Positions 8,764 to 62,850 of a stretch of 64,000 bases of DNA are shown here, piece after piece; within the stretch, counting starts at the first letter, position 1, and each line of letters begins with the position of its first letter. The notes below the pieces were generated by a model. It did not search any database, was not told the DNA's origin, and saw only the letters and a program-made list of their open reading frames with translations. The DNA is from Pseudanabaena yagii GIHE-NHR1. Its GTDB lineage: Bacteria; Cyanobacteriota; Cyanobacteriia; Pseudanabaenales; Pseudanabaenaceae. The stretch covers positions 3,467,501 through 3,531,500 of the forward strand of contig NZ_JAAVJL010000001.1 of the NCBI RefSeq assembly GCF_012863495.1. Direction: 5' to 3'. A program made the position numbers and the translations under genes.

Positions 8764-9246
8764 ATGGATACTTATTCCGAAGAACAGGTTGATCAGATTC
8801 TCCGCTATGCTCTCGCCAAGAGAACTAATGGTCAAAACCTCACCAAACAGCAGATATACGAGATTGCCTCAGATATGGGTGTGAGTGAAGCTGATTTCCT
8901 CGCCGCAGTACAGGAATGGCAATCTAAGCAATTTGTACGCAAGGAGCAAGTGGAATTCGATAAATATAAAAAGAAGTCTTTTAAATCGAATTTGTTGAAA
9001 TTTGCGATCGTCAATTCTTTTTTAGTGGCGTTAAACTTATTTACCTCTGGTCAAATTGGGTGGGAAGTTTATCTACTTGTATTTTGGGGCTTAGGCGTAG
9101 CACTAGACGCATGGGTGACCTATCAAACCGATAGTGAAGAATATGAAAAACAATTTCAAAAATGGATGCAAAAACAAAAACGCGATCGCTTAACTGCTCA
9201 AATTACAGGCAAATTAACGACTAGCCTCGAAGAATGGTTGAAATAA
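8764..9246 (+). CDS. 2TM domain-containing protein
   Basis: It is preceded by a good ribosome binding site (GGAGG, 6 bp before ATG). The 160-aa protein has an N-terminal helical region with SHOCT-like character (EEQVDQILRYALAKR, then NLTKQQIYEIASDMGVSE). Two membrane segments follow at about 76-95 and 101-120, then a charged C-terminus with WMQKQKRDRL. The paired membrane helices with a short loop match the 2TM family, known as isolated proteins or fused to sensors. It stands alone between repeats, and its function is unknown. Confidence 0.75.
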   Translation: MDTYSEEQVDQILRYALAKRTNGQNLTKQQIYEIASDMGVSEADFLAAVQEWQSKQFVRKEQVEFDKYKKKSFKSNLLKFAIVNSFLVALNLFTSGQIGWEVYLLVFWGLGVALDAWVTYQTDSEEYEKQFQKWMQKQKRDRLTAQITGKLTTSLEEWLK

Positions 9247-44713: not shown

Positions 44714-46420
44714 CTAAACTTGGTCAGATCCGACAGCGCGATCGCGTCCCAGTTCTTTCGCTTTATAGAGTGCCCGATCAGCCCTGATCAACAAATCTAA
44801 GCTAGAACCATCTTCAACGGTCATTGTTGCAATTCCACAGCTCAAGGTCACAATGTTACTGGTCTTCGAGCTTTTGTGAGGAATATTTAATGACCGCACA
44901 TTCATGACAATTCTCTCAGCAACAGATAAGGCTGCCTCAAAATCAGCATCAGGAAGCACAACAGCAAACTCTTCCCCCCCATATCTTCCCGCTAACTCAC
45001 CACTTCGCACCGATTTAGCAATAGCACTAGCAACCTGTTTTAAGCACAAATCCCCCGATTGGTGTCCATAGCTATCGTTGTAAAGCTTGAAATGGTCGAT
45101 ATCACAGAGAATTACCGACAAATCTTTTTTGGTATTGAAGTTTTTATGGAGAAAGCGATCGAAATAGCGACGATTAGCAATTTGGGTGAGTTCATCGATA
45201 TTTGAGGCATAGCGAAATTTTTCACTTAAATAAATGATGGAAATAACGCTACTGAATAGAAAGGAGAAGACAGTGGGAACTATGGGCAGCCATAGGCTCA
45301 GTAAAAAGGATAGGTAGCTAATTACTAACAGTCCAAAAACTGATATTGAAAGAAAAGTGATGATCCCAATAATGAATTGGCTTTTACCCAGACTACCTAG
45401 TCGCAGAAAGCTGGAAATCCCATTAACACCTACGAAAGAACTCAAGAGTACTAGTATGCCTTCTATCCATTTGGGGCTAGTTTGCAAGAATGGTCGTCCA
45501 TTAATTGCTCCATTCACAATTTGCGATATCAAGTTGGCATGAATATAAACCCCAGGAATCTTGCCATAGGGTGAGAGAAAGAAGTCGCGTAGACTTTCAG
45601 CAGTAGAACCAATCAAAACGATGCGATTTTCAAACAAATTTTGAGGATATTTACCAGCTAAAACATCGGTCATCGAAATTGACTGAAAACAATCCGTCCG
45701 ACAACGATAATTCATCAGAGTTTGATAGCCGCCATCATCAGTAAATTCATACCCCGATTGGTAAGGTAAGATTTTGGCTTTACCAAGAGTAACTGCGCGA
45801 TCGCTACCTGTACTAATCTGAGGGGATATATTTTCAGCCCGTAGATATTGCAAGGCGATCTTGATTGCAAAACTGTAAACTATTTCCCCGCCGTCCTTTT
45901 CCACTGATAGCAAGCCCCGTCTTACTATCCCATCCTCATCAACCATCACATCCACAAACCCAACTTGCTGATCGTAACTAATGTAATTAGGTGGCGACAC
46001 ACTGGGTTGAACAATTTTTTCGGCAACAATCAGATTTGGAGTAGATTGCAAAACACTTTTTAGCTCCTCAAAGCCTGAATCTACAGGTATATTACGGTAT
46101 ACATCCAATCCAATGACCCTAGGTTTGCCATTCCGCACCTTAGTAATCATCTTTGCTACTACCGCATCAGAAAATGGCCATTTCCCAATTTTAGAAATAT
46201 CCACATCATCAAAGGTAATCATAACAATTCGCGCTTCCATTCCCTCAGAAGCGCGAATTTGAAAGAATTTATCTAATAAATTAGATTCTAGTAATTCAAA
46301 TATGCCCGTTGTCTGTGCTGTAAAGATAATGATGGCGATCAGTATAGCTAGTGCAAATATACTACTTCTAAATCTATTAGCAGCACTGACAAACTTATTT
46401 AAGACGCGCAATAGGTTCAA
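44714..46420 (-). CDS. CHASE2-domain diguanylate cyclase
   Basis: The 568-aa protein has an N-terminal membrane helix (IFALAILIAIIIF). A periplasmic CHASE2 sensor follows at about residues 40-310 (SGFEELKSVLQ, GFVDVMVDEDGIVRRG, ENRIVLIGSTAESLRDFFLSP, GVYIHANLISQIVNG), then three membrane segments and a C-terminal GGDEF domain with RYGGEEFAVVLPDA (about 481). The GGEEF active site and DELTQIANRRYFD are intact, so it should make cyclic di-GMP in response to an external signal. It starts with TTG, has AAGGA in front, and overlaps the DUF928 gene by 26 bp, so the two are translationally coupled. Confidence 0.88.
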   Translation of the reverse strand: MNLLRVLNKFVSAANRFRSSIFALAILIAIIIFTAQTTGIFELLESNLLDKFFQIRASEGMEARIVMITFDDVDISKIGKWPFSDAVVAKMITKVRNGKPRVIGLDVYRNIPVDSGFEELKSVLQSTPNLIVAEKIVQPSVSPPNYISYDQQVGFVDVMVDEDGIVRRGLLSVEKDGGEIVYSFAIKIALQYLRAENISPQISTGSDRAVTLGKAKILPYQSGYEFTDDGGYQTLMNYRCRTDCFQSISMTDVLAGKYPQNLFENRIVLIGSTAESLRDFFLSPYGKIPGVYIHANLISQIVNGAINGRPFLQTSPKWIEGILVLLSSFVGVNGISSFLRLGSLGKSQFIIGIITFLSISVFGLLVISYLSFLLSLWLPIVPTVFSFLFSSVISIIYLSEKFRYASNIDELTQIANRRYFDRFLHKNFNTKKDLSVILCDIDHFKLYNDSYGHQSGDLCLKQVASAIAKSVRSGELAGRYGGEEFAVVLPDADFEAALSVAERIVMNVRSLNIPHKSSKTSNIVTLSCGIATMTVEDGSSLDLLIRADRALYKAKELGRDRAVGSDQV

Positions 46421-47132
46421 CTGATTGAAGTCCTTGATCTTTTAGCAATTTTTCCCAAGCTTTCGTTATTACTTGGGTATCAGGAGATTTCTCTCGACGC
46501 AATCTATTGAGATCACTGACCATGTCATACCAAATACCATTTTCGCCATATAAGGCAACTTTCTCCAGAGGTGAAGATGATTGCAGCTTAGAAGCAAGAG
46601 TTGGTGATTTAGTAGTCCGTTGAATCCAGCCTTCAATGGCAGGGCTATCTGGTCTGAGAGATTTTCCACAGATAACTACCATTGTCCACTTATATGTTTT
46701 ATTTGCAACTAATTCTGGTGCATCACTAGGCATTTTAATAGCCACAATTCCTGTATCTGATGGAAAAGGTAAGAAGGTTTGATAAACTAGCTCACCATCA
46801 TCACTTTTTAAGCTAAATAGCATTTGCTTAGCTGAAGTTTGCGCTTTATATATCAGGAATTCGGGATGGCTAGAGACTGTTAAGCCAAAACTTGACTGTG
46901 GCAAGATCGCTCCAGTTTGGACATCGGATTTTGAGAGATCATTTAAACAGGTTTTCCCGTCACGAGTGGCAGCACCAGTTGTTGTTTTAGGTGTACCTTG
47001 CTTAGGTGGCTTAAAAGAAATGCTCTCTGATGTAGGTCTGGCGAAACTATTCGGGTCTAAGTTAGGGATTGAGACTACCGAAAGTGGTAGTAAAACAAGT
47101 GTGAGGCATGTCAGACATATTTTATGGTTCAT
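46395..47132 (-). CDS. DUF928 exported protein
   Basis: The 245-aa protein has a signal peptide (ICLTCLTLVLLPLSVVS), a disordered linker and a DUF928 domain (TVSSHPEFLIYKAQTSAKQ, VYQTFLPFPSDTGIVAIKMP, YKWTMVVICGKSLRPDSPAI, EKVALYGENGIWYDMVSDL). DUF928 genes in cyanobacteria typically neighbour CHASE2, CHAT and two-partner-secretion genes, as here. Function unknown. It is the first gene of a pair with the CHASE2 cyclase. Confidence 0.85.
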   Translation of the reverse strand: MNHKICLTCLTLVLLPLSVVSIPNLDPNSFARPTSESISFKPPKQGTPKTTTGAATRDGKTCLNDLSKSDVQTGAILPQSSFGLTVSSHPEFLIYKAQTSAKQMLFSLKSDDGELVYQTFLPFPSDTGIVAIKMPSDAPELVANKTYKWTMVVICGKSLRPDSPAIEGWIQRTTKSPTLASKLQSSSPLEKVALYGENGIWYDMVSDLNRLRREKSPDTQVITKAWEKLLKDQGLQSVEPIARLK

Positions 47133-48056: not shown

Positions 48057-48061
48057 CTATA
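47846..48061. repeat. Split family A element with family C core and family B copy 3 inside
   Basis: The left end TATAACAGTCCTAAATC is separated by ~200 bp from the matching right end AGGATTGCTATA. Between them lie the C stem (GGCTTCGACTTCGCTCAGCC and complement) and a complete B element (TTACAGCGCTTTG ... AAATTGCTGTA). This looks like insertions into an older A copy. The right end provides the TAG stop of the CHAT gene. Confidence 0.65.
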
Positions 48062-50720
48062 GCCAACTACCAATTAATACAAAAGCTGCCCAATAGTAGG
48101 GATGTTGGTATTGACGATCTTTGAGGATAGAGATTTGTGCTTCTTGTAATGCTTCAGCTCTGGAGATATTTGCTTGTTTGAGGAGAATGTCATAAAAGTT
48201 GGACATTAACATACTGGTTGAAAGATCATTCACAGCCCATAGGCTGCCAATAGTACTCCTTGCACCCGATCGCAAAGCTAATCCTGCTAGTCCTAAAGTC
48301 GCATTGGCATCACCTTCGGCAGTTTTACAAGCACTGAGAATGAGCAGTTCTAAGGGATGGCTCCGATTGTTGGTGCGATCGCGCAAAAAGTTATAGAAAT
48401 CAGGAATGGTTAAGCGATCATCCCAAGCCAATATAAATGTTGAGTCTGGATTGGAGCTGAATTGACCATGTGTTGCCAAATGTACGATGGAGGTATCTTG
48501 CTTGGTTAGCCCTTGTTGGATCTTCGATTTAGTGAAATTAACATCTAGCTCTGTTTTCGTCGGAATTTTGAGAGCAATTTGTGCGGCTTCTAACTTGACT
48601 CCTTCAAGACCGACAAAGCCTTGGCGACTTTCAGTCAAGCCACCTAACCAGACACTCAGTTGATTACGATCTAAAGGCTTTGCTCCCAACAATTGTAAGC
48701 CCGGAGTTAAAGCCATACGATATTTCTCGATCGCATATTGTTTGCCATCATGCAGGGCTGCCATCGGCAGATTTCGCAAGGAGCTATCGAGCACGAAGAC
48801 CAGATTTTTGATTTGCTTCTCTACTAGGACTGGCTCCACAGGACGAATAATCCAATCGTAAAGTTTTTGAGAAACCTTTAAACGTTCGCGATCCGAAAAT
48901 GCGGGGTTAAGGGATTGGAGATATTCGTTGGCAGTTTTTTCTAAGTCTGCCTGAGATACTTCTATGGCGTGATACCTCAATGGGGCATTCGGAAAAGAGG
49001 TAATAATCGCTAAGCGATCGCTCAAAACCGTGGAATATAGAACTGCGGAACTCAAGTCAATGGCATCGATCTGCTGAGGTATAACATTCAAGCAAGCTGC
49101 TCGAAAGTAATTTTCCAATTCCACAACTTGCAAGGATTCTAGTGTCTGACGAGCTTGTTTGAGATTCTCTTGGGTTGGATGTTCGCTGCGTAATAGTAAA
49201 GAAACGAGTTCGCGATAGATCGGTTCGATGCGATCGCGAAAGGCAAACTGAACTTCTGGGGCTGTGGTGATCAGTTCTCGCCTTAGGGTTTGGATACTCT
49301 GTACAGCTTGCACATAGGAGGCGATCGCGCGATCGTATTCACCCTGTTGCTTTAAGACCCTGCCCGAAAGCCATTGCCAACGATAAATGAGATCATCGGC
49401 ATTTGACTCTTGAGCTAGTACCAATGCACGTTGGGCAAGCTTATTCGCATCAGCTAATTGGCGATTTTGTTCATAAAGTATACCTAGCTGACCGATCGCA
49501 AAGGATTCGGATCGGCGATCTTGTAATTCCTGTGCTTGACGGATCGCAATGGTTAGAGAATCCGCAATTTTGGATGAACTAATAAATTGTGGAGTTTGAG
49601 TATTGTTTTGAACCAATTTGGTTAATTTAATTAAACTATCGGCAAGATTGACCCGTAGATAAATGCTGCGCCGACTAGGTTGAAGATTCACGAGTTGCGG
49701 CTCGATCTGTTGCCACAAAGTTTGTACTTCGGCAAGGCGATCGCTTTCGATGAGCAGACTGATCTGTACTGCTTGAGCTTCTAGTCGCAAGATATTACTA
49801 GGAGCCAGCTTTGCCGCTTGTTCATAGTTTTTTAATGCCGATTCATAATCTTTAGTTAGTCGGAAATTATTGCCTAAGTTGAGCAGAGTAGAACTACTTT
49901 CTAAAGAGTTATTGAGCTGCTGAGAGATTTCTAAACTCTTTTCCAAAATCTTTTGCGACTGCGGCAGATCCCCAAGGGTCTGCAAAGTTGTGCCTAAGCT
50001 ACGCAATACAACCGCTTTGAGGATGGAGTCAGGTTGTTTTTGCAGGCGCAGGGCGATCGCCTCTAACTGTTCACTTGCTTGACGAAATAAACCTAAAGCT
50101 TGCAGGGCTTGAGCCTGATTGGTGAGGCTACCTAATTGACCAATCTCATCACCAATTTGAGTATATTGCTCTACAGCCATCTTCCAACTTTCGAGAGCCG
50201 CTTGGGGCTGCCCCTTAGCAAGTTGCAAGCTACCTTTATTGTTACTAATCCTTGCCGCTAGCTCTATGCCATCTTTTGTAGTTGATGACTGCTTGTTGAG
50301 TAAATCTAAACTTTGGGCGATCGCTATTTCCGCTTCTTGCCATGATCCTAAATCCTGATACGCAATCGAGAGATAGCTAAGACAAGCAACTTCATTTAAC
50401 TGATTTTGGGAACTGGAATCGGTACGTTGGCGATCTCGATAGATTTGGAGCGCCTCTTTCCATGCTGCCACCGCCTGCACCAGTTGACCTTCAGCATAGA
50501 AGCGATTGCCATCCTCCATTAATGTGTCAGCAGACTGGGCTAATGGAGCTATCATCACTTTTGCTGGATTATCCTGACGCTGCTGATTTGTAGCGATCGC
50601 AGGTTGCCCGATGGCGATTACTAAGCAAACTGCGATCGCCGCAAGCAAGCCCAAACCTAGCTTATATTTTTTTCTTATTCTCCGCCAGAGATTTTGAGAA
50701 GTAGCGATCGTCGGTTTCAT
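48057..50720 (-). CDS. CHAT-domain protein with TPR repeats
   Basis: The 887-aa protein has an N-terminal basic plus hydrophobic signal or anchor (LGLGLLAAIAVCLVIAIG). Several TPR repeats follow at about residues 60-450 (AVAAWKEALQIYRD, AIAQSLDLLNKQ, LGTTLQTLGDLPQSQKILEKSL). A C-terminal CHAT caspase-like domain runs from about 600, with IVHLATHGQFSSNPD (His) and LLILSACKTAEGD (Cys). Both catalytic residues are present, so a cysteine protease activity is possible. It lies next to the TpsA exoprotein gene on the same strand. Its stop codon TAG falls in the end of a family-A repeat. Confidence 0.9.
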   Translation of the reverse strand: MKPTIATSQNLWRRIRKKYKLGLGLLAAIAVCLVIAIGQPAIATNQQRQDNPAKVMIAPLAQSADTLMEDGNRFYAEGQLVQAVAAWKEALQIYRDRQRTDSSSQNQLNEVACLSYLSIAYQDLGSWQEAEIAIAQSLDLLNKQSSTTKDGIELAARISNNKGSLQLAKGQPQAALESWKMAVEQYTQIGDEIGQLGSLTNQAQALQALGLFRQASEQLEAIALRLQKQPDSILKAVVLRSLGTTLQTLGDLPQSQKILEKSLEISQQLNNSLESSSTLLNLGNNFRLTKDYESALKNYEQAAKLAPSNILRLEAQAVQISLLIESDRLAEVQTLWQQIEPQLVNLQPSRRSIYLRVNLADSLIKLTKLVQNNTQTPQFISSSKIADSLTIAIRQAQELQDRRSESFAIGQLGILYEQNRQLADANKLAQRALVLAQESNADDLIYRWQWLSGRVLKQQGEYDRAIASYVQAVQSIQTLRRELITTAPEVQFAFRDRIEPIYRELVSLLLRSEHPTQENLKQARQTLESLQVVELENYFRAACLNVIPQQIDAIDLSSAVLYSTVLSDRLAIITSFPNAPLRYHAIEVSQADLEKTANEYLQSLNPAFSDRERLKVSQKLYDWIIRPVEPVLVEKQIKNLVFVLDSSLRNLPMAALHDGKQYAIEKYRMALTPGLQLLGAKPLDRNQLSVWLGGLTESRQGFVGLEGVKLEAAQIALKIPTKTELDVNFTKSKIQQGLTKQDTSIVHLATHGQFSSNPDSTFILAWDDRLTIPDFYNFLRDRTNNRSHPLELLILSACKTAEGDANATLGLAGLALRSGARSTIGSLWAVNDLSTSMLMSNFYDILLKQANISRAEALQEAQISILKDRQYQHPYYWAAFVLIGSWL

Positions 50721-50788: not shown

Positions 50789-53311
50789 TTATTTGGTGGG
50801 ACATACAACAGGGAGCCGCCAAGCGGGAATTGATGATGTTGTCGCACTTGCTAGCAGCTTTAAATGTCCGTTGCGATCGCTTTCCCATCCCTGAGCCTCG
50901 ATTTGTGGAAAGGGAGCGACGGCATTGGAGATTGACGGTGAATTAACAGCAGGACTTTCTGAAGGAATATTCGCTGTTTTCGTAATGTTAGATGATTGAT
51001 GAGCTTGTAGCCTTGACCATCGCAAATCTCGCCAAATGGAATTACTAGCTAGAGGTTGCGTCGCATCATTAGGAACACCTCCACGTCCAGTCACAATAAA
51101 TTCATTACCTCGAAACCTTTCACAGGATGCCGCAATTTGCTTGTCGGATGTTAGGTCAGTAGGCAGCTTAACTAAGCCTCGACTCAAATTATTCTCAGGT
51201 GAGAGAATTTCCACAGTGCCATTAAATTGCGAACCTAGAGCCGAAGTCGCCGTAATATCACTTAGTGGTGTTAGGACATTACTTGTCTGAAATCCAATCA
51301 CACCTTGGGCAGTGATAATAATCTGTCCTCCAAAACTATTGGCAGCATTTGCAGTGATATCGCTGTTTTCCGTAGGCACGGCAACCAGAAAATTAGTATT
51401 AATCGCAATGTTACCGCCGATCGCAGATCCCAAGGCGTTAGTAGAAATGAGACTGCCATTGCGTAGAACGATAAGTTGCGAATTCAAGTTGATATTGCCA
51501 CGATTGCCACCTGCGGAATCAATATTGATGCGCCCATTATCAAGCAGAATTGATGGTGTATTAATGGTGATATTCCCCACTAACCCAGTTCCCGCAGGAG
51601 CACCAGCAACACTAGGAAAGTTACTGGCACTGATAATGCCTCCATCACGAACACTAAGGCGATCGCTATTGACGACAATATTGCCTCCATTGCCAGTGTC
51701 AAAGATGGCGTTAGCAAATAAGCCACTACGTCCGCGAGTTACCTGTCCCGCAATATCAATCGTCTTAGCAGTGACCAATAATAGACCTGCATTGCCACTA
51801 CCAGCAGTACCAACTGAAATCTGCGCCCCATTCAAGATTGATAAATTATCCGTTGCAATATTTAGAATATTGCCATTTCCTGTAGCACCAAACTGGACGG
51901 CATTGGCAATTCCTGTTGGCTTAGTTGATGTCCCGATGAGATTAATATTTTTGGCGGCAATGTCAATTTTGCCTGTATTACCTATCCCAAAGGTAAGATT
52001 TGTCAGTTGAGCACCGTTAGAGATTTGCAAATTATTAGTATTGATTTGGATGTCGCCACTATTTCCTGTCACACCTGTATCAAGAACTTGAGAAAACACA
52101 CCGCTAACATAAAAATTTGAATTGGATATCCCAGATAGGGAAATATCATTAGCATTAATTTTGATATTGCCTGCATTACCAGTTCCTAGTACCCCAGCCG
52201 AAATCTGCGCCCCATTTGTTAACTCTAACCTGTTGGTAGCGATTGTGATATTGCTGCCATTGCCTGTAGAACTCGACCCTGTATCCGTAAATATCCCACC
52301 GGGAAAAGGAACCGTGGATTCTCCTGTTGCCGCGAGAAGTTCGATCGCACGGACAAATATTTCACCGCCATTTCCACTACCTAAGGTAGATGATAGAAGC
52401 ACGGAGCCATCATTCAAAGTTACTTGTCTGCCCTGTACCTGAATGCTACCCCCAGCATTACCACTCGTATCCGCCATCGCCGCTTGTTCTAGGCGAATAT
52501 TTCCAAGGTTTGGTGCATTGTCGTAGTTCAATAGCCAGCCACTAGCAGTTTGAGTAATTCCTACAAACCCATTGCCCTGCACACTCCCCAGTTCGATGCG
52601 TCCACTATCAGCAGTCAAATTCGCACCTGTCAACGTTACATCTCCACCAACAATCGCCAAAGTACGACCACTCGACACATTTAAAGATGGATTGCCAGAG
52701 CGCAAAATCTCTAAAAAGGTAGGAGGAGCAAAATCTAAGCCATTGCCATTGCCCTGTGCAGTGATCGCGCCATTCGTTAATCCTGAGAATTGCAGCCCTG
52801 AGGGCACGCTGACGAGCAGCAGGGGCGAAGTAATTTGTGTACTAGCATTGGCTCTAAATTCAGTACCATCAAGAAACCGCACACTATTTGCTGTAGTCCC
52901 TAAGAATGATCCCCCAATATTTAAGCTGGCATTTTGACCAAAAATAATTCCATTGGGATTAAGCAAAAATAAGTTAGCAGAGCCACTAGCTTGAATAGTT
53001 CCATCGATATTGGAAATAGAACTCCCAGTTACCCGAACGAGAATATTTTGGATAGAGAGAGCATTGTTGAAAAAGGCAGTAGACCCAGTAGGGACAGAAA
53101 ACTGGCTAAAGCTATGAAATAAATTATTGTTAGCCGTTGTCCCTCCTGTAATTGTAAACAAGGGATTGCCTGTGACCACGGAAGGATTTGGTAATGTGGC
53201 ATCTGGCGTAATTTGAGCAAATGTTGACTGAGGAATAAAAACAGCAGGGCTACTAGCAAAGACAAAGGCGGCGATCGCACCTCTTAGCCGATTCCATTGC
53301 AAAGTTTTCAT
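50789..53311 (-). CDS. Filamentous haemagglutinin-type exoprotein (TpsA)
   Basis: The 840-aa protein has a signal peptide (GAIAAFVFASSPAVFIPQSTFAQ) and an N-terminal TPS secretion domain with SGSANLFLLNPNGIIFG (NPNG motif) and LNIGGSFLGTTANSVRF. A long Gly/Asn/Thr-rich beta-helix repeat region follows (GNAGNIKINANDISLSG, then repeated GNGGNIVVNSDRLSV-like units). A GAGGAAGAC ribosome binding site precedes the ATG. It should be exported through the TpsB pore encoded divergently, 247 bp away. No enzymatic domain is seen; adhesion or matrix roles are likely. Confidence 0.9.
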   Translation of the reverse strand: MKTLQWNRLRGAIAAFVFASSPAVFIPQSTFAQITPDATLPNPSVVTGNPLFTITGGTTANNNLFHSFSQFSVPTGSTAFFNNALSIQNILVRVTGSSISNIDGTIQASGSANLFLLNPNGIIFGQNASLNIGGSFLGTTANSVRFLDGTEFRANASTQITSPLLLVSVPSGLQFSGLTNGAITAQGNGNGLDFAPPTFLEILRSGNPSLNVSSGRTLAIVGGDVTLTGANLTADSGRIELGSVQGNGFVGITQTASGWLLNYDNAPNLGNIRLEQAAMADTSGNAGGSIQVQGRQVTLNDGSVLLSSTLGSGNGGEIFVRAIELLAATGESTVPFPGGIFTDTGSSSTGNGSNITIATNRLELTNGAQISAGVLGTGNAGNIKINANDISLSGISNSNFYVSGVFSQVLDTGVTGNSGDIQINTNNLQISNGAQLTNLTFGIGNTGKIDIAAKNINLIGTSTKPTGIANAVQFGATGNGNILNIATDNLSILNGAQISVGTAGSGNAGLLLVTAKTIDIAGQVTRGRSGLFANAIFDTGNGGNIVVNSDRLSVRDGGIISASNFPSVAGAPAGTGLVGNITINTPSILLDNGRINIDSAGGNRGNINLNSQLIVLRNGSLISTNALGSAIGGNIAINTNFLVAVPTENSDITANAANSFGGQIIITAQGVIGFQTSNVLTPLSDITATSALGSQFNGTVEILSPENNLSRGLVKLPTDLTSDKQIAASCERFRGNEFIVTGRGGVPNDATQPLASNSIWRDLRWSRLQAHQSSNITKTANIPSESPAVNSPSISNAVAPFPQIEAQGWESDRNGHLKLLASATTSSIPAWRLPVVCPTK

Positions 53312-53558: not shown

Positions 53559-55280
53559 ATGCGGTTACCTTTTATATCTATTGTTATGAAACCTATTGTT
53601 TTTGGCACAATCGCCTTATCAGCTTGGTGGGTTGCCATAACTCCCATTCTCGCCCAATCGCTGAAGCCATCCGATTTAGTACCAACGACACCTACCGCCC
53701 CAGAAGTTCCCCCACAATTTCTGCCGCCTGTTGACAATCTATTAAAACCAAATAACCAACAAACTAATCCGTCTCTAGAATCGCCCGATCCTAGCAAAAC
53801 TTTTGTTGTCCGAGAGTTTCGCGTAATCGATAGCACGGTGTTTTCTGCCGATGAGTTGGCTGCTGCTGTGAAGCCTTTTACAAATCGTCCGATTAGATTT
53901 GCAGACCTATTACAAGCTAGAGTTGCGATCGCTGATTTGTATATTCGTAATGGCTACATCACCTCAGGCGCTTTTATCCCTCCCCAAGAAACAAATAATG
54001 GCATAGTCACAATTCAAGTAATTGAAGGCAAATTAGAAGATATTCAGATTACAGGTACTAATCGACTTGATCCCAGCTATATCAGATCGCGGCTAGAAGT
54101 GGCAACTGGAGCACCATTAAATCGCGATCGCCTACTTAATGCCTTGCAACTACTGCAAATCGATCCTCTATTAGAATCCGTCTCAGCCGAACTAAAGGCT
54201 GGACAGAAATTAGGGACAAATGTATTGGCGATTAAAGTTACTGAAGCAAAATCATTTAGCGTAAGGGCAAATCTAGATAATTCCGCTCCCGCAAGTGTTG
54301 GTCAATTACAACGCCAAGTGGAAGTCAATGAGCGAAATGTCAGTGGTGTAGGCGATCGGCTTGCCCTCATTTACGGTAATACCGATGGGCGTAGTCAGTA
54401 TAATCTCAGCTATACCATTCCTATTAATCCTTACAATGGCTCTCTCAGCCTGAGTTTCAATAATGCCAATAGCAACATTATCACTCCAGAATTTAAGAGC
54501 CTTGATATATTTTCCAACTCAACGGTTTATGATCTAACCTTCCGTCAACCTCTGGTGCAAACACCTGCCCAAGAATTTGCACTGGGAGCGACACTTTCCC
54601 ATAGCGAAAGCTTCACCACTCTACTTAAGCTACCAATTCCAATCTCATCTGGGTCTGACGATTTTGGCAGAACTAAGCTGACCACCTTTCGCTTTTTTCA
54701 AGACTACACACAGAGGAGTAGTCAGGATATTCTCGCCTTGCGATCGCAGATTAGTTTTGGCTTAGGTGGGGTACTCAATTCTACAATCAACGCCAATTTC
54801 CCCGATAGCCGTTTTGTTGCTTGGCGGGGACAAGCTCAATATATTAGACAGCTAGACGATGATGCCTTACTAATTGTGAGCGGTGGCTTACAATTTGCAG
54901 ATCGTCCCTTGCCTGCGATAGAACAGTTTAGTGTAGGCGGGAGCCTAACTGGACGAGGATATCGCCAAGATGCACTAGTTGGAGATAACGGTATGAACGT
55001 TTCCATTGAAGCCCGTCTACCTGTTGTGAGCTTTCAAGAAATTCGCGGCTTATTGCAGATTGCCCCCTTTATTGATGTTGGTACAGTGCAGAACCAAAAT
55101 AGTTCAGATACTTCCTCCAACACTTGGCTAATAGGAACGGGTTTAGGATTACGTTGGCAAATGGGCGATCGCCTAATTGCTAGATTTGACTACGGATTTC
55201 CGCTAATTCCCATTAAAGGAAGCCGTAACTCATGGCAGGAAAATGGTATTTATTTCTCGCTTTCCTATGGACTGTTTTAA
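53559..55280 (+). CDS. ShlB/FhaC-type two-partner secretion transporter (TpsB)
   Basis: The 573-aa outer-membrane protein has a signal peptide (a second ATG at 53586 begins MKPIVFGTIALSAW), a Pro-rich linker and a POTRA domain at about 80-165 (FVVREFRVIDSTVFS, YIRNGYITSGAFIPPQE, QVIEGKLEDIQITGTNRL). A 16-strand barrel follows, with QFSVGGSLTGRGYR and the closing GLRWQMGDRLIARFDYGFPL and YFSLSYGLF. It would export the TpsA protein encoded opposite. The gene ends 60 bp before a convergent small-peptide gene. Confidence 0.92.
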   Translation: MRLPFISIVMKPIVFGTIALSAWWVAITPILAQSLKPSDLVPTTPTAPEVPPQFLPPVDNLLKPNNQQTNPSLESPDPSKTFVVREFRVIDSTVFSADELAAAVKPFTNRPIRFADLLQARVAIADLYIRNGYITSGAFIPPQETNNGIVTIQVIEGKLEDIQITGTNRLDPSYIRSRLEVATGAPLNRDRLLNALQLLQIDPLLESVSAELKAGQKLGTNVLAIKVTEAKSFSVRANLDNSAPASVGQLQRQVEVNERNVSGVGDRLALIYGNTDGRSQYNLSYTIPINPYNGSLSLSFNNANSNIITPEFKSLDIFSNSTVYDLTFRQPLVQTPAQEFALGATLSHSESFTTLLKLPIPISSGSDDFGRTKLTTFRFFQDYTQRSSQDILALRSQISFGLGGVLNSTINANFPDSRFVAWRGQAQYIRQLDDDALLIVSGGLQFADRPLPAIEQFSVGGSLTGRGYRQDALVGDNGMNVSIEARLPVVSFQEIRGLLQIAPFIDVGTVQNQNSSDTSSNTWLIGTGLGLRWQMGDRLIARFDYGFPLIPIKGSRNSWQENGIYFSLSYGLF

Positions 55281-55343
55281 TACAATTACAGAACTTTGCA
55301 TTGATATAAAACGTTTTGCATCCACTTAAAACTTGAAGATGCT

Positions 55344-55568
55344 TTACCACCATCCACAAAAAGGAATAGTACAAACTCTTCCCGATGGGTCTTCTTCATC
55401 TGATAACGCCGCAATCTTTTGTGTAGATTGTGCGGATACCTTAGGAGACTGAGATTCTAAATTTGAAGCTATATTTTTAGGCTGAGAAAGTGCCAAGGTC
55501 ACAGTACTTAAAGTAATTAGGCTAGATGCAGCGATCGCGGAAGCAGAAAAGAAAGAAGAGATTTTCAT
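55344..55568 (-). CDS. Small secreted peptide with C-terminal CGWW, copy 1
   Basis: The ATG at 55568 was chosen; an upstream TTG four codons earlier is less likely. The 74-aa product has a signal peptide (MKISSFFSASAIAASSLITL, then TVTLALS). A hydrophilic linker follows (QPKNIASNLESQSP) and it ends CTIPFCGWW. Copy 2 at 55997-56224 has the same order: signal, QPSNIATNLESQ and C-N-VKNPLCGWW. Two Cys spaced by 4-6 residues before WW could form a disulfide. I do not recognise the family. It is convergent with tpsB. Confidence 0.6.
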   Translation of the reverse strand: MKISSFFSASAIAASSLITLSTVTLALSQPKNIASNLESQSPKVSAQSTQKIAALSDEEDPSGRVCTIPFCGWW

Positions 55569-55996
55569 GGCTAACCCCAAGTGTTTTACAATTTGATTTC
55601 AAGGGAACTAATTTTAGAATCAAGTTAACAAATTGTCTTGATTCTCCCACCCCATGCACATAGATAAAAAATCAGAAAAACTTGTCTCAATATCCATTTT
55701 TATGGATATATAAACCAGTGTAATTGAGAAAAACTTCGTAGTAATTAACTACAAAATTACTATATTCTATTTCGAGAGTTAATGTCTATACTAGCAAGTT
55801 ATAGAAAAGTTATTACAGTATTTTTTTAATTAAAGTACCTACGGCTTCGACTTCGCTCAACCAACGTTGGTTGAGCGAAGTCGAAGCCATACAAAATCGG
55901 TGGTACCTTTTTTCTCATCAAGTCCCTAAGTATTATAAATATCAAAGGGATATTCAAGTCTATTTGAATATCCCTTTGATATTTATCAAATTTGTT
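55569..55996. repeat. Intergenic region with family C copy 3 and a perfect hairpin
   Basis: Family C lies at 55826-55925 (TAATTAAAGTACC, stem GGCTTCGACTTCGCTCAACC and complement, end GGTACC...CAAGTCCC). A perfect stem AAATATCAAAGGGATATTCAA / TTGAATATCCCTTTGATATTT follows at 55938-55985 and can terminate the peptide gene transcribed toward it. The first ~240 bp show nothing recognisable. Confidence 0.65.
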
Positions 55997-56224
55997 TTAA
56001 GATAAACTCGCCAAAAAGTCTTCAATAATACTCCACCATCCACAGAGCGGATTTTTCACATTACAATCTCTGCCTGCAATTTTTGAACTAGAAGGTGTAG
56101 ATATTTGAGAAGGTTGAGATTCTAAGTTAGTAGCAATATTAGACGGTTGAGAAAAGGCTAAAGCAATGGCGCTTAAATTAGAAGCAGCGATCGCAACAAC
56201 AAAGCCGATAGATGAAGGTTTCAT
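55997..56224 (-). CDS. Small secreted peptide with CGWW motif, copy 2
   Basis: A clear ribosome binding site (AGGAG, 6-7 bp before ATG) supports the 75-aa product. It has a signal peptide (MKPSSIGFVVAIAASNLSAI), the linker FSQPSNIATNLESQPSQIS shared with copy 1, and the tail CNVKNPLCGWW followed by SIIEDFLASLS. The extra amphipathic tail after CGWW is missing in copy 1. It lies in the same direction as the metalloprotease genes upstream and may belong to their regulon. Confidence 0.65.
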   Translation of the reverse strand: MKPSSIGFVVAIAASNLSAIALAFSQPSNIATNLESQPSQISTPSSSKIAGRDCNVKNPLCGWWSIIEDFLASLS

Positions 56225-56626
56225 AATTAACTCCTAAAAGTATAAGGTTTGAGTTCAAGTAAAATTTCAAATCAGTTAAGTAATTAAGTTCTAGAGCAAC
56301 ATTGACAGGGAGTCATACTACTGATGAAGTCAGACATAATCGATTAATTCTCTAAATCTTTACTAAAGTATTTAATTGGGTTTCCCTCCCTTGAAATCGG
56401 TCTATATTATAATAATTTTGTGAAAAATTTAGCCACACATAATTATTAGATTAAGTATTATCTAATAACTCAATAATGGAATCATATAGCCGTTTGAATT
56501 TTTTGTCAGCAGTAAAAAGTTATATATAAGTGATAAATTTCACTAGATTATGCAAGATCATATTTGATGGCTAAACATCTCTCTAAAGAATCTTGCTAAA
56601 GAGAGTACTTAAATCGATCTTTTATA
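56225..56626. other. Gene-free AT-rich stretch
   Basis: No gene, stem or known repeat was recognised; AT content is high. The last part contains the 3' flank of the 74-aa gene. Confidence 0.5.
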
Positions 56627-56851
56627 TTAAGTTGAGATACTATTTTTATGAATAGCTAATAACTGATCAGCTTGATAAACTAAATATTTAGACTCATCAA
56701 TTAACTCTGCAATGGACAAATTTATAGTCTTTTGCTCCATATACTCTGGTAAATGTGAGAATTTCTTATCAAGATTAGAATGAACTGAATTATTTGATTT
56801 ATCCATTTGACTCTTAACTGGTGAATTAGTATCAATATTTTTGTTACACAT
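56627..56851 (-). CDS. Small hypothetical protein (74 aa)
   Basis: The ATG is preceded by TAGGA at fair spacing. The product begins MCNKNIDTNSPVKSQMDKSN and is hydrophilic. It ends in a helical stretch (INLSIAELIDESKYLVYQADQ) and has no signal peptide. It follows the disrupted metalloprotease gene by 47 bp and is likely co-transcribed with it. Family not recognised. Confidence 0.5.
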   Translation of the reverse strand: MCNKNIDTNSPVKSQMDKSNNSVHSNLDKKFSHLPEYMEQKTINLSIAELIDESKYLVYQADQLLAIHKNSIST

Positions 56852-57529
56852 AATTTTGATCCTATTACCACATATTATTTATTCTTCCTGAGAAACAACT
56901 AGTGGAAAGACCACAAAGCTCCTTCACTCAACCACCAAAGTCCAAAGGATCTAGAGTCATCTAACTTAAAATTGTTGGATGTGCTAGCAGTTAATTGCAA
57001 ATTGTCTTTATTACCAAAACTCACAGTATTAGAAAGAGCCGAGCTGATTGGGGCGATCGCATTAATATCAAAGTCATTATTAAAAATTTGCTGAGAGATC
57101 GCCAGAGAGTCGTTATTCTGTGAATTGGAAGATACTGAGAAGAAATCTAAATTGCCAGATTGAGAAGTATTGCTCATAGAGAGCTGATATTTACCCAATT
57201 CTTCTCCCACTAAGGATTTTCCATCTTCTTTACCAGTTAGAGGATTGGTAGCTATATTTGAAATATCCTGATTTGGAGAAAGATTTTGGCTATCTAGTCC
57301 ATCATCTAAAGTTTCAAAAACGGACTGCTCTGAAACGACTTGGCTAAACTGTTGCCACCAATTAGTACTACGTGCAAAGCTCTCTTGCCACCAACTACCT
57401 GTTCTAGCATTAGTAGTAGAAGGAGTAAATGTATTGAATGGGAGATAAATATCGCTACTATCAAGCATCAATCCTAACGCGCTGGAGATATCTTGTTTTG
57501 TCTTAGTATTTGCAGATTGTTGAGCTTGT

Positions 57530-57538
57530 GTATATAAC
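57530..57538. repeat. 9-bp target site duplication, left copy
   Basis: GTATATAAC directly left of the IS; the same nine bases lie at 58850-58858 on the right side. Confidence 0.9.
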
Positions 57539-58849
57539 CTGATTGACTGACAAAAGTCTATGAAGCATAGTCGAGAGTAGAAGCATAGAACTCAATGCGG
57601 AATAATTTCTGAAGATGTTTTCGACGAGAAGCAATAGCAGGGTGAGAGTCAAGATAAGAAGTAAAAGAGTAGAAAGGCAAGAAAGCCCAGTTTTTAGTGA
57701 TAGCGGTGTGAATCCAGTTCCAGCCAATCTTGAGATAACTAAGCCCACGAAACCAATGAGGATCAACCAAACGACGATAGCCAGAATCAGCAACCGCCAG
57801 TCCTTGAGCCGTTAAAAACAAGGTGGTCAGTGCTATCACAAAACAAAGGCGAGAAATGGCAGGAGCCGAACGTAAACGCGAAGATTCTAAATCAAAGCCA
57901 TTAGATTTATCATCCAAGAAATTCTCCTCAATATCGAATCTCAGACCATACTCCCAAAAAGTTTGGAGTGTGGTAGGTTCAGTACTGAGAATATACCAAT
58001 ACTCTCGGCTCCCAGATTCCCAAGCCGCCGCAATATGCACATCGGTAAGACGCTTGGACTCAGTTTTGTGAACTTTAACATTGTGGATCAACTTAGCTTC
58101 ACCAAGACGAAGATGTAATTGTTTGACTGTTTGCCAGCCATGCTTGGGGCATATATCCAGAAATTACCCTTGATCCGAATCCGACATTGCCATTTTAATT
58201 CCCACACATAGCGCACCAGTTCTGGATTAGCAAATGCTCGGTCTGCTAATAAAACTACTTTGACATTCACGGGCAACAGTTTCGATGCGCGTTTGAGCAT
58301 GTCTTGATAGCTACTCATCTCCACACTACTACTGCGATGTTTGATTACACGCCAACATAACGGTAAAGCTCTTCCCTGATGAACTACACACAATCGGATC
58401 ATGCTGTATTCTTCCCACAGTTGACTGGTATCAAAACTCAGATATATTTCTGGCTCTTTCCATTTAGCGATTAACTCTTTGATTACTGGACTGTATAGCT
58501 TAGCTGGATTTATGCGCGGATTGTTCAGCCATCTTGATAGTTGTCTTTGCGTGCTTTGGGCGATCAATGCTTTTGTGTTGATATGGCTTAACCACTTCGT
58601 TAAATTCACACTCCCTGTGGCGATCATTCCCACCATCATCCACGCCATTACTCCCAAATGGCGCACATCTGACCACTGGCTGTATTGACTCCCGAATTTT
58701 ATTAGTTCATTATAGATACGTGAGGCGTTTTGGGTCATTTGTCCTATGCTCCTTTTTCTTCAAAAAACAGCATACGCCTCTTTTTTACTCAAATTCAATC
58801 TCTGTATACTTTCTCGCAACTTCTCTTACCACTTTTGTCAGTCAATCAG
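57539..58849 (-). mobile_element. IS4-family-like insertion sequence, complete (1311 bp)
   Basis: Terminal inverted repeats CTGATTGACTGACAAAAG and its complement lie at the two ends, flanked by the 9-bp duplication GTATATAAC. The ends start CTGA and a 9-bp duplication is made, as in the IS50/IS10 branch of IS4. It carries one transposase gene split by a frameshift and lies on the minus strand inside the metalloprotease gene. Confidence 0.9.
57558..58738 (-). pseudogene. IS4-family transposase, frameshifted
   Basis: The first frame (58738-58088) reads MTQNASRIYNELIKFG, then YLSFDTSQLWEE (first Asp), VVLLADRAFANPELV (second Asp) and GNFWIYAP. It then loses frame at a CCCC run near 58148. The other frame continues as PKHGWQTVKQLHLRLGEAKL, then HNVKVHKTESKRLTDVHIAA and YGLRFDIEENFLDDKSNGF (Glu region), and ends at 57558. 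One lost base, or a -1 slip at the C-run, joins the two into one transposase of about 390 aa. All three catalytic residues exist across both frames. A programmed frameshift is possible but simple decay is more likely. Confidence 0.82.
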
Positions 58850-58858
58850 GTATATAAC
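58850..58858. repeat. 9-bp target site duplication, right copy
   Basis: GTATATAAC directly right of the IS. Confidence 0.9.
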
Positions 58859-59805
58859 TGACTATAGTTAAGGGCGCTAGTAGCTTGAGAGTTAATGTCC
58901 CAACCAATGACATTAAAAGCATTCAAGTCTTGTTGAGAAACTACCGCAACTGCTCCTTTTTTTATCTCGGCATTCATGATTCCACCCGAAACCCAATGGC
59001 TTGCTTGCAAGCCATTTCCTCCTAGTTTGGCATTAGAACCTTTCTGAAAACTACCTAACGAATTAGTTCCATCTAAAGAAAAGAAAGGGTTTGAACCGGG
59101 GGATAAATCAACTTGATACTTACCACTACGATAGGAATAACGGAAAAGATCTAGGGGAGTAGCAATATCTGGACGCATCATCGCCTTTGATGAGTACAAA
59201 TAGGAGCTTGGATCATCCCAAGGTTGATCGACACTGCTTTGAAAGCCTAATATATGACCGATTTCATGCAGTGCAACGCCAATAAAGTCGATGGTATTGT
59301 TTGGTGTCGTATTTGTACGGCTGAAGTTGTAATCCCAAGTAGTCTTTTGTCCTGTCAAATCGCGCATGACTACATAGCCATCTAGTACGCTCTGCCCATT
59401 TATGGGATAGAGATTGAGAGCCTTGACATTCGCACTATTTAACTCCACCATCGTTCCAATTTGCGAGCTATCAACAAGCTTATTCGGATTGAATATATCG
59501 ATATTCTGAACGTCAGCATTAAAGTAGCTACTAAATATATCAGCATTGGATTTTATCGCCGAACTGTCAATGCTAGATGAGACATCATAACCAAGCGCTT
59601 GTTTAAAAATATAGTATTGATTTTCATTGGCACGAGCAACCGAACCAGCAATAATGTTGTCATTAGGGAAAACAGATTGAATATCAACACCAATATTGAC
59701 AGTAACATTATCAGTTAAGTACGAAGACCAAATTTTTCCTGCAAACTCAAATGCGGTCATTTGAGTCTGTGATACCCCTTGAGAATAGCTAAAGTTAAAT
59801 TGCAT

Positions 59806-60174
59806 TGCTTGTTCACCCTAAAAAATTACATATATCCCCCACAAGCTATTTTTTCTTACTTTGATTTCATAAAGTCAGATTTAAACTGTCTAAAAATATT
59901 ATTAGATTTAGAAGATTTAGATATCTAATCTCAATCAAACAAGATAGTCATATAACGATCACATAATTATTATGTTGAATTCTTTAAATCTGTTGACTAA
60001 ATAATTCAATAAATTAGATATAACAGGATTTCAATCTTTTAACTATTCCTAAAAGTTATTAGTAAGTTATATACAGTCCTAAATCATTTGTAGATTTTTG
60101 GATTTGTGGAAGCGCAGACCGAAGGGGTGCGCTTTCACAAATCATTTAGGATTGCTATATCTTTTTATCAATAA
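59806..60174. repeat. Intergenic region with family A copy 3
   Basis: Family A lies at 60070-60159: TATACAGTCCTAAATCATTTG ... CATTTAGGATTGCTATA with stem GTGGAAGCGCAGACC-gaa-GGGGTGCGCTTTCAC. The left ~260 bp are AT-rich and carry the promoter of the disrupted protease gene. Confidence 0.75.
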
Positions 60175-61767
60175 CTAACGGACAGTCCACCAAGATACTT
60201 CTCTGAGCCACCAAGGAGCCAGTGAATTTGAGTCATCTGTTAGATTAAATTTATCTAATGTGCTAGAAGTCCCTTGTAAGTTGTCTTTATTTCCTAAGCT
60301 GATATTAGAAAGAGCCGAGCTGATTGGCGCGATCGCATTAATATCAAAGTCATTATTGAAAATTTGCTGAGCGATCACTAGAGAGTCGTTATTCTGTGAA
60401 TTGGAAGATACTGAGAAGAAATCTAAATTGCCAGATTGAGAAATATTGCTCATAGAGAGCTGATATTTACCCAATTCTTCTCCCACTAAGGATTTCCCAT
60501 CTTCTTTACCAGTTAGAGGATTGGTAGCTATATTTGAAATATCCTGATTTGGAGAAGGATTTTGGCTATCTAGTCCATCATCTAAAGTTTCAAAAACGGA
60601 CTGAGCTGAGAGGGTTTGACTAAATGTTTGCCACCAATTAGTAGTACGGGCAAAGTATTCTTGCCACCATGTACCTGACCTTGCAGAAGTTGTTCCTAAA
60701 GTTTCGGCTCCTGTAAGTTGAAGATAAACATCACTACTATCAAGCATCAATCCCACTGCACTAGAGAGACTTCCTTTGGTTTTAGTGCTAGCAATTTGTT
60801 GAGCTTGTGTATATAACTGACCGTAGTTAATTGCCGTATTAACACCTTGGGGATTCACATCCCAGCCGATCGCATCAAAGGAATTCAAATCCAATTGAGA
60901 AATCTTAGCAACCGTTCCTTTCTTAATCTCTGCATTCATGATGCCACCCGTAGTCCAGTGGCTACCCTGTAAGCCATTGCCACCTAAGACAGTATTAGAG
61001 CCTGTTTGTAGATTACCTAAAACGGTATTACCATCTAAAGAGAAGAAAGGATTTGCCCCAGGAGATAGATCCACTTGACTATTGCCGCCACGGGAGGAAT
61101 AACGGAACAAATCGAGAGGAGTAGCAATATTGGCACGATTACCAATGCTTTGAGTATATAAATCGCGATTGACTGTCGGATCAATCCAAGGTTGATCGAC
61201 ACTACTTTGAAAGCCTAAAATATGACCGATTTCATGCAGAGCAACGCCGATAAAGTCAACAGTAGTTGTAGAGCTGCCACTTGTACGACCGAAGTTGTAA
61301 TCCCAAGACGTACCCGTACCAGTTAGGTCGCGCATGACGATATAGCCATCAAGTACACTTGCACCATTAGTAGGATTGAGATTCAGGGCTTTGGCATTGG
61401 CACTGTTTAACTCCATGTAATTACCCATCTGTGTGCTATTGATGAGTGCCCCAGTTTGGTAGTTTACTGCCTGAAGGTCAGCCGCAAAGTTGCCACCTCT
61501 ATTTGCTTTAGAGCCAATTGCCGAGCTGTCAATGCTAGATTTAGTGTCAGCTTTGAGCGCGTTATTAAATGTTGTGTATAGGCTTTGATTGGCGCGAGCC
61601 ACCGAACCTGCAATAACATTAGCGATCGGAAAACTGGCTTGTAGGTCAACAGCAAGATTAACTGTAATGTTATCTGTCAAGTACGAAGACCAAATTTTTC
61701 CTGCAAACTCAAATGCAGTAATTTGAGTTTGTGATACTCCTTGAGAATAGCTAAAGTTAAATTGCAT
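60175..61767 (-). CDS. Secreted metalloprotease with W-rich C-terminus, NF038122-like
   Basis: The 530-aa protein starts MQFNFSYSQGVSQTQITAFE, has AAKIWSSYLTD-like FAGKIWSSYLTDNITVN, and a zinc site HEIGHILGFQSSVDQPW (about residues 185-201). GGIMNAEIKKGTVAKISQLD and NSFDAIGWDV follow, typical of cyanobacterial NF038122-type metalloproteases of the metzincin kind. The C-terminal ~230 residues hold WW pairs (TWWQEYFARTTNWWQTF), a conserved block with SVFETLDDGLDSQ, and end APWWLREVSWWTVR. No classical signal peptide is seen, so it may be exported by another route, for example type I. It is intact, unlike its neighbour. Confidence 0.85.
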   Translation of the reverse strand: MQFNFSYSQGVSQTQITAFEFAGKIWSSYLTDNITVNLAVDLQASFPIANVIAGSVARANQSLYTTFNNALKADTKSSIDSSAIGSKANRGGNFAADLQAVNYQTGALINSTQMGNYMELNSANAKALNLNPTNGASVLDGYIVMRDLTGTGTSWDYNFGRTSGSSTTTVDFIGVALHEIGHILGFQSSVDQPWIDPTVNRDLYTQSIGNRANIATPLDLFRYSSRGGNSQVDLSPGANPFFSLDGNTVLGNLQTGSNTVLGGNGLQGSHWTTGGIMNAEIKKGTVAKISQLDLNSFDAIGWDVNPQGVNTAINYGQLYTQAQQIASTKTKGSLSSAVGLMLDSSDVYLQLTGAETLGTTSARSGTWWQEYFARTTNWWQTFSQTLSAQSVFETLDDGLDSQNPSPNQDISNIATNPLTGKEDGKSLVGEELGKYQLSMSNISQSGNLDFFSVSSNSQNNDSLVIAQQIFNNDFDINAIAPISSALSNISLGNKDNLQGTSSTLDKFNLTDDSNSLAPWWLREVSWWTVR

Positions 61768-62162
61768 TACTTAATTCACCCCGAAAAATTAAACGTATCT
61801 CCCCCATTCAACAGTTGTTTTTAGCCTCAGCTTATACTCATATTCCTCAAATTAGCTAAAAATCTAATTAGATTTATATGCTTGGTTTCGACTAAATTCA
61901 AGATCAAATCAAATAGTCATATAACAGTCATATAACTTTTTTGTTTGATTCTTTAAAACAATTAAATCGCTTCAACCATATGAATATACAGGAGCTTACA
62001 GGTTTTAACAATCTCTAAAAGTTATTACTAAGTTATATGTTTATTAATAGTTGATAGATGTTTGATTAGTACTTGGCTAATAGGTATAAAGGTCTTCTAG
62101 CATGTCACAAAAATAGAATTTTGCTCTAATCAATAACCCCCAAAAACTATTTTTCTCGCCAA

Positions 62163-62253
62163 TATAGAAATCCTAAATGGTTTTTTGAAGCACGCCTCGA
62201 ATGGGTGCGCTTCAACAAACCTAAAAATCTACAAATGATTTAGGAGTGCTATA
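62163..62253. repeat. MITE-like element, family A copy 4 (inverted)
   Basis: TATAGAAATCCTAAATGG at the left and ACAAATGATTTAGGAGTGCTATA at the right; the inner stem TTGAAGCACGCC ... GGGTGCGCTTCAA is damaged. Confidence 0.8.
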
Positions 62254-62581
62254 TAGCGCAACGCGCTTAAACTCCAGAGTAATTTTTGAAGGCGCAGGGT
62301 TCTTAATTTTACGGCACGACCTGCCAAAAAATACAAATAAGTAGCTGGGCATAATTAAAAACCAGAGTCAAAAGCTGTGGCGCACGCTGCGCGTGCGCCA
62401 CAGCTTTTGGGTTTTATATTTAATTGCGCCTTACTTATGGCGATCGCACTTTCACTACAGCATTTTTCAAATGAGTGCGTACTCATTTGAAAACAAAACA
62501 TCAATTCCCATAAAAGTTTCGAGATTTCACTTTGCCTACGGCAAAATGAAAAATACCTGCAACAGAATAGAAAATGCCAAG

Positions 62582-62636
62582 TAGTCCTAAAGAGGATAGG
62601 CGGCGCGCCGCGCCGCCTATCCTCTTTAGGACTACC
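62582..62636. repeat. GC-cored perfect hairpin
   Basis: Arms TAGTCCTAAAGAGGATAGGC and complement flank GGCGCGCCGCGCC. It resembles the GGCGGCGC stems near 4190 and 6611, a further family of structured repeats. Confidence 0.65.
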
Positions 62637-62850
62637 AAAACGTCATTGCTGCATAGGGATTGCTTGCAGTAAAGTATGCACAAAAATTGTTCATACTCAG
62701 GTTTTGACATAGGTTTATAGATTTTTTATGGATTTATTTGTACTGAAATGAGCACCGCAGGACATTTATTGCTAATCTTGCGTTAACTTAAAGCAAGATC
62801 TTGGAATCTTTAGAAACAACTATCGCGTAGGCGCGTTACCTGTCATTTTT

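What the first reader, a model, noticed from the sequence alone, without database searches (positions are those of the whole stretch)
55344..56224. Two small secreted CGWW peptides next to W-rich proteases
Two paralogous ~75-aa precursors with signal peptides share the linker (QP.NIA.NLESQ) and a C-terminal Cys-x4-6-CGWW. They lie downstream of metalloproteases that carry WW-rich tails, on the same strand. A secreted peptide plus protease set, possibly with processing of the precursor, is a plausible small system that I do not recognise.
Basis: partly seen in the sequence, partly recalled or inferred. Interest (0 to 1): 0.6.

Follow-up and report, generated by a model that had tools for sequence, protein, structure and literature searches.

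The report
Secreted CGWW peptides in matrix regulon
Two neighbouring genes in a Pseudanabaena cyanobacterium encode small, apparently exported peptides ending in or near Cys-Gly-Trp-Trp; they belong to an unnamed family seen only in this genus, sit beside one adhesin-secretion gene cluster, and carry the same DNA control box as the nearby metalloproteases and several slime-coat genes, so they are probably part of the cell's extracellular matrix programme.

Summary
Two paralogous precursors (74 and 75 aa, minus strand) share a signal-peptide-like leader, QP.NIA.NLESQ and C-x4/6-CGWW. The family is real: 15 full-length copies in 9 of 26 Pseudanabaena genomes, dN/dS below 1, with Cys, Cys, Gly, Trp invariant. 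No Pfam, NCBIfam or PADLOC model matches. The genomes with the peptide are exactly those with one orthologous TpsB gene, and the peptides sit beside that CHAT/TPS/TpsB cluster. NF038122 proteases adjoin the peptides intact (or IS-split) in only 3 of 9 loci; three others keep relics.

The new evidence is regulatory. Peptides and WW-tail proteases share an upstream box, TAACTT-N5-TAACTT. In 294 kb of loci chosen around these genes there are 23 sites at that spacing and none at any other spacing from 0 to 15. Genus-wide a stricter form occurs 111 times (3 in the control), often before HepC-like exopolysaccharide sugar transferases, STAS proteins and PEP-CTERM-type exported proteins. Best reading: small exported matrix/biofilm peptides in an exopolysaccharide regulon. 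Their activity is inferred.

The parts
55344..55568 (-). Peptide A precursor, 74 aa: signal-peptide-like leader, SQPKNIASNLESQ, linker, C-x4-CGWW at the end
   Evidence: family members
55997..56224 (-). Peptide B precursor, 75 aa: same type of leader, C-x6-CGWW followed by SIIEDFLASLS; AGGAG before ATG
   Evidence: family members
55796..55812 (-). TAACTT-N5-TAACTT box upstream of peptide A
56515..56533 (-). One-mismatch box (TCACTT-N5-TAACTT) upstream of peptide B
55617..55644 (.). Dyad GAATCAA-N14-TTGATTC between box and start codon of peptide A; present at the same place in most other family members
56627..56851 (-). Third small ORF (74 aa, LIDESKYLV... motif) between proteases and peptides; relative or remnant found at all nine peptide loci
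60175..61767 (-). Intact NF038122 metalloprotease (530 aa): no signal peptide, HEIGH motif, WWQ repeats and APWWLREVSWWTVR C-terminus
60053..60069 (-). TAACTT-N5-TAACTT box upstream of the split protease
62019..62035 (-). TAACTT-N5-TAACTT box upstream of the intact protease
58846..59805 (-). N-terminal part of the second NF038122 protease, cut by an insertion sequence
56899..57471 (-). C-terminal WW-rich part of the split protease (76.7% identical to the intact protease over 215 aligned positions)
53559..55280 (+). TpsB outer-membrane transporter (ShlB/POTRA_2), the constant neighbour of the peptides
50789..53311 (-). TPS-domain (filamentous-haemagglutinin-like) secreted protein
48057..50720 (-). 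TPR-CHAT protein of the same cluster

Best explanation
The two genes encode small Sec-exported peptides of about 32-60 residues after leader removal. The two conserved cysteines probably form a small C-terminal disulfide loop that presents a Gly-Trp-Trp end. They are made as part of an extracellular-matrix / exopolysaccharide programme, switched by a regulator that binds TAACTT direct repeats (11-bp period, typical of OmpR/PhoB-type response regulators). The same programme drives the WW-tailed metalloproteases and exopolysaccharide genes. In the matrix the peptides most likely act as small structural or adhesive components, or as biofilm-promoting factors, together with the neighbouring two-partner-secretion adhesin or with polysaccharide. 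Shown by sequence: the family, its conserved features, the synteny and the shared box. Inferred: export, disulfide, the regulator type and the matrix role.
For: Family conservation and purifying selection. Peptide presence equals TpsB-orthologue presence across the 26 genomes (9 and 9), with the TPS cluster adjacent in every peptide locus (in G013 that tpsB copy is broken). Exact TAACTT-N5-TAACTT about 240 bp upstream of 10 of 15 peptide genes, one-mismatch forms at two more, and exact at all seven WW-tail protease genes or remnants examined. 23 sites at spacing 5 and 0 at the other spacings 0-15 in 294 kb of selected loci; by my mapping 22 of 23 lie at peptide or protease genes or their relics. 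Genus-wide 111 exact sites of the stricter form against 3 in the reversed control. Downstream genes recur: HepC-like sugar transferases, STAS proteins, PEP-CTERM-type exported proteins, a BcsA-like glycosyltransferase. The conserved block also holds a CHASE2-GGDEF protein.
Against: No expression or secretion data. Signal peptides were judged by eye and a crude script, not a trained predictor. AlphaFold models were uninformative (peptide pLDDT 52, protease 28). The TPS genes tested lack the box, so adjacency to them may only reflect inherited position. G013 has a second, intact CHAT/TPS/TpsB block without peptides. Some box targets (a menC-like gene) do not look like matrix genes. Two peptide copies (G016a, G010b) have no recognisable box.
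Confidence: 0.45

Rival explanations
1. Secreted antimicrobial (bacteriocin-like) or signalling peptides: a constant leader exports a variable linker and a Cys-loop end that acts on competitors or siblings.
For: Tandem copies with variable linkers. In lw0831 (G020) two copies share about 300 bp of identical upstream DNA plus the leader start but have different C-termini, as gene conversion would give. Some pairs show relaxed dN/dS (about 0.6-0.8).
Against: No recognised immunity or modification gene at the loci (not exhaustive); the peptide end is nearly constant rather than variable; the characterised small secreted cyanobacterial proteins carry double-glycine leaders, not Sec-type ones (PMC4997328).
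Confidence: 0.2
2. Peptide and protease form a functional pair: the metalloprotease processes the peptide, or the peptide inhibits or escorts the protease (as Inh does for serralysins; own knowledge).
For: Adjacent on one strand, shared control box, relics showing the pairing is old in several lineages; all three genomes with intact WW-tail proteases also carry peptides.
Against: Six of nine peptide-bearing genomes have no intact protease of the family, yet the peptides persist. The third WW-tail protease of this genome has no peptide gene nearby.
Confidence: 0.2
3. Accessory factor of the two-partner secretion system, for example a periplasmic helper or surface partner of the TPS adhesin.
For: Perfect co-occurrence and adjacency with one TpsB orthologue group, none at the paralogous TpsB loci scanned.
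Against: The TPS genes tested lack the shared box; the second G013 TPS block has no peptide while the G013 peptides remain beside a broken tpsB copy.
Confidence: 0.15

Closest known systems
EbfG1-4 small secreted proteins of Synechococcus elongatus (PMC4997328)
   Same: Several small secreted cyanobacterial proteins; EbfG are required for biofilm development, the role proposed here
   Different: EbfG carry double-glycine leaders and need the PteB peptidase-transporter; these carry Sec-type leaders and a C-x(4-9)-CGWW end; no sequence comparison with EbfG was made
NF038122 (metallo_LGF) metalloproteases (the neighbours)
   Same: The neighbouring proteases score well over the family cutoff
   Different: Distant cyanobacterial relatives have signal peptides and PEP-CTERM-like ends; the Pseudanabaena group starts at the domain and ends in a WW-rich tail
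SphR/PhoB Pho box of cyanobacteria (PMC1906773, PMC11126600)
   Same: 8-bp direct repeats with 3-bp linker, 11-bp period
   Different: Core is ATAAC, not TTAA(C); no recognisable phosphate gene among the downstream genes examined
Inh / serralysin inhibitor pairs (own knowledge)
   Same: Small secreted protein beside an M10-type protease
   Different: Here the small gene persists in genomes without the protease; no sequence comparison was made

Membership tests
NF038122 metalloprotease (neighbours) | Score over the curated cutoff and HEXGH zinc motif | tested here: met
   224 and 218 bits against 80; HEIGH in the alignment
EbfG / double-glycine secreted proteins | Double-glycine leader (and PteB-type transporter) | tested here: not met
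   Leaders are Sec-like with AxA-type ends and no GG in the leader; presence of a PteB homologue in the genome was not tested
Known peptide or defence families (Pfam, NCBIfam, PADLOC) | Match to a curated model | tested here: not met
   0 families for both peptides
Pho box / Pho regulon | 8-3-8 direct-repeat layout | tested here: met
   TAACTT repeats with 11-bp period, no other spacing; layout from PMC1906773
Pho box / Pho regulon | TTAA core in each repeat and phosphate genes downstream | tested here: not met
   Core reads ATAAC; no pst/pho gene recognised downstream of the sites examined; promoters of this genome's own phosphate genes were not examined
Post-translationally modified (RiPP) peptide | Modifying enzyme in the locus | tested here: inconclusive
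   None recognised at the nine loci, but most of those ORFs were not scanned against families
Sec-exported peptide | Cleaved signal peptide and location outside the cytoplasm | not testable with these tools
   Leader is typical by eye; no trained predictor or proteomics available

The most novel reading that the evidence does not exclude
A new family of diversifying extracellular signal or antagonistic peptides with a disulfide-closed Gly-Trp-Trp end, co-expressed with proteases and slime-coat genes and reshuffled by leader-and-promoter gene conversion.
Probability: 0.2. Interest if true: 0.7.

Novelty: new variant of a known kind. Interest (0 to 1): 0.5.

Why it matters
It adds an undescribed exported peptide family and a candidate genus-wide control box linking exopolysaccharide genes, PEP-CTERM-type exported proteins, metalloproteases and small peptides in Pseudanabaena. 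The box makes the matrix programme of this genus, and its unknown regulator, directly testable.

Tried and rejected
Peptide/protease co-dependence: rejected as obligate because six of nine peptide-bearing genomes lack an intact protease. Whole-promoter homology between peptides and proteases: only the box is shared; sequence downstream of it is mostly at shuffle level. Pho regulon: layout fits, core does not. TAACTGA heptamer repeats (PMC4679880): contiguous 7-mers, a different repeat. Rfam: no hit in 55200-62840. AlphaFold of peptide and protease: too poor to use, so no fold search was run. The GAATCAA dyad as a genome-wide operator: most other sites have long complementary arms like hairpins or terminators and were not followed.

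Full report
What is there. The window (G000:C1:3467501-3531500) lies in a genome whose peptide-bearing relatives in the named collection are Pseudanabaena sp. and 'Phormidium tenue' FACHB-1050. Two minus-strand ORFs encode 74- and 75-aa precursors. Both begin MK, have a hydrophobic leader, then [LF]SQP.NIA.NLESQ, and carry C-x4-CGWW (A, at the very end) or C-x6-CGWW plus an 11-residue tail (B). No Pfam, NCBIfam or PADLOC family matches them; the best solved-structure hit of the family profile is at E 0.088.

It is a family. A genus search (26 genomes) and a profile search (38 genomes of the taxonomic family) find 15 full-length copies in nine genomes, G000, 005, 010, 012, 013, 015, 016, 019 and 020, plus one truncated copy in G013. 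Cys, Cys, Gly and the first Trp are invariant; the second Trp is Phe in one copy; the spacing between the cysteines is 4-9; 12 of 15 end right after the motif and three have a short tail. Pairwise dN/dS runs from about 0.2 to 0.8. Of 386 genomes drawn from the phylum only weak hits fall outside the genus. From matching contig lengths G019 is FACHB-1050, G020 is Pseudanabaena lw0831 and G016 is UWO311.

Neighbourhood. In every one of the nine loci the peptides sit beside an orthologous tpsB, with a TPS-domain protein and a TPR-CHAT protein beyond it; in eight of nine a 91-aa ORF and a large ORF follow on the other flank. The nine genomes with this tpsB group (69% identity or more) are exactly the nine with peptides; tpsB paralogues at 56% identity or below have no peptide in the flanks scanned, about 1.5 kb each side. 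G013 is the partial exception: its peptide-linked tpsB copy is broken, and an intact second block elsewhere has no peptide. Since the block is inherited as a unit, this co-occurrence is not independent evidence of function.

Proteases. NF038122 matches in the genus are four in G000, one in G016, two in G019 and a fragment in G021. Those next to peptides in G000, G016 and G019, and an unlinked one in G000, have WW-rich tails; the fourth in G000 has a signal peptide and a PEP-CTERM-like end. G005 keeps a fused remnant, G010 a box with a few protease-like codons, G020 a protease-type box, G021 a fragment with its box. A further conserved small ORF (LIDESKYL... motif) lies between proteases and peptides, with a relative or remnant in all nine loci. 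Distant relatives of the protease in other cyanobacteria start with signal peptides and end in PEP-CTERM-like tails.

Shared control box. About 236-248 bp upstream of 10 of 15 peptide genes lies an exact TAACTT-N5-TAACTT; G000b and G015 have a one-mismatch form about 305 bp upstream, G013a a weaker one, and G016a and G010b none that I recognise. All seven WW-tail protease genes or remnants tested have it, including the unlinked third protease of this genome. In 294 kb of loci fetched around these genes, spacing 5 gives 23 sites and every other spacing from 0 to 15 gives none; the reversed control gives none. Because those loci were picked around peptide and protease genes, the density there is not an unbiased background. 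The genome-wide counts are: 19 sites with up to one mismatch in G000 against 2 in the control, and 111 exact sites of TAACTTNNNNATAACTTTT in 26 genomes against 3 (my sum of its rows). The box was first noticed in the peptide and protease promoters and then searched for, so the genus-wide count against its control is the cleaner test.

What else has the box. I read the longest ORF downstream of the sites that were fetched as loci, not every site. Recurrent targets are sugar transferases (Pfam Bac_transf; best NCBIfam model HepC, 126 bits on a partial sequence, cutoff 140), STAS proteins, exported proteins of PEP-CTERM type (one confirmed as NF038130), a BcsA-like glycosyltransferase and a menC-like gene. 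This is the basis for calling it a matrix/exopolysaccharide regulon; it is an inference from gene content. The sites also occur in genomes without peptides, so the regulon is older or wider than the peptides.

How it most likely works. A regulator of OmpR/PhoB type (inferred from 11-bp direct repeats; compare PMC1906773 and PMC11126600) turns on exopolysaccharide genes, proteases and these peptides. The peptides are exported, may form a disulfide loop, and act in the matrix. The protease is not needed for the peptide to be kept in evolution, so processing by it is at most optional. Rivals are given in their field.

Limits. E-values come from one-genome searches; export and disulfide are unproven; structure predictions failed; the TPS genes tested lack the box, so their link to the peptides may be positional only; the nine genomes are close relatives, so the conserved synteny counts few independent events.

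Noticed in passing
57530-58858: Insertion sequence 57539-58849 with inverted ends CTGATTGACTGACAAAAGT and a 9-bp target duplication GTATATAAC splits the second protease; its two transposase-like ORFs had no Pfam hit at E 0.001.
   Followed up: partly
L033:8260-8640 and 8830-9215: In lw0831 two tandem peptide genes have identical upstream DNA (about 300 bp) and leader starts but different C-termini, suggesting gene conversion.
   Followed up: partly
55838-55890: Palindromic repeat with GCTTCGACTTCGCTCAACC arms between the two peptide genes (read).
   Followed up: no
L072: G021 has a protease fragment with its box beside a CHASE2-like gene start and no peptide, as if the block between had been deleted.
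   Followed up: partly
60175-61767: WW-tail proteases contain repeated AR.G.WWQE units before the tail.
   Followed up: no
44714-47132: CHASE2-GGDEF and DUF928 genes belong to the same conserved block in several loci.
   Followed up: no
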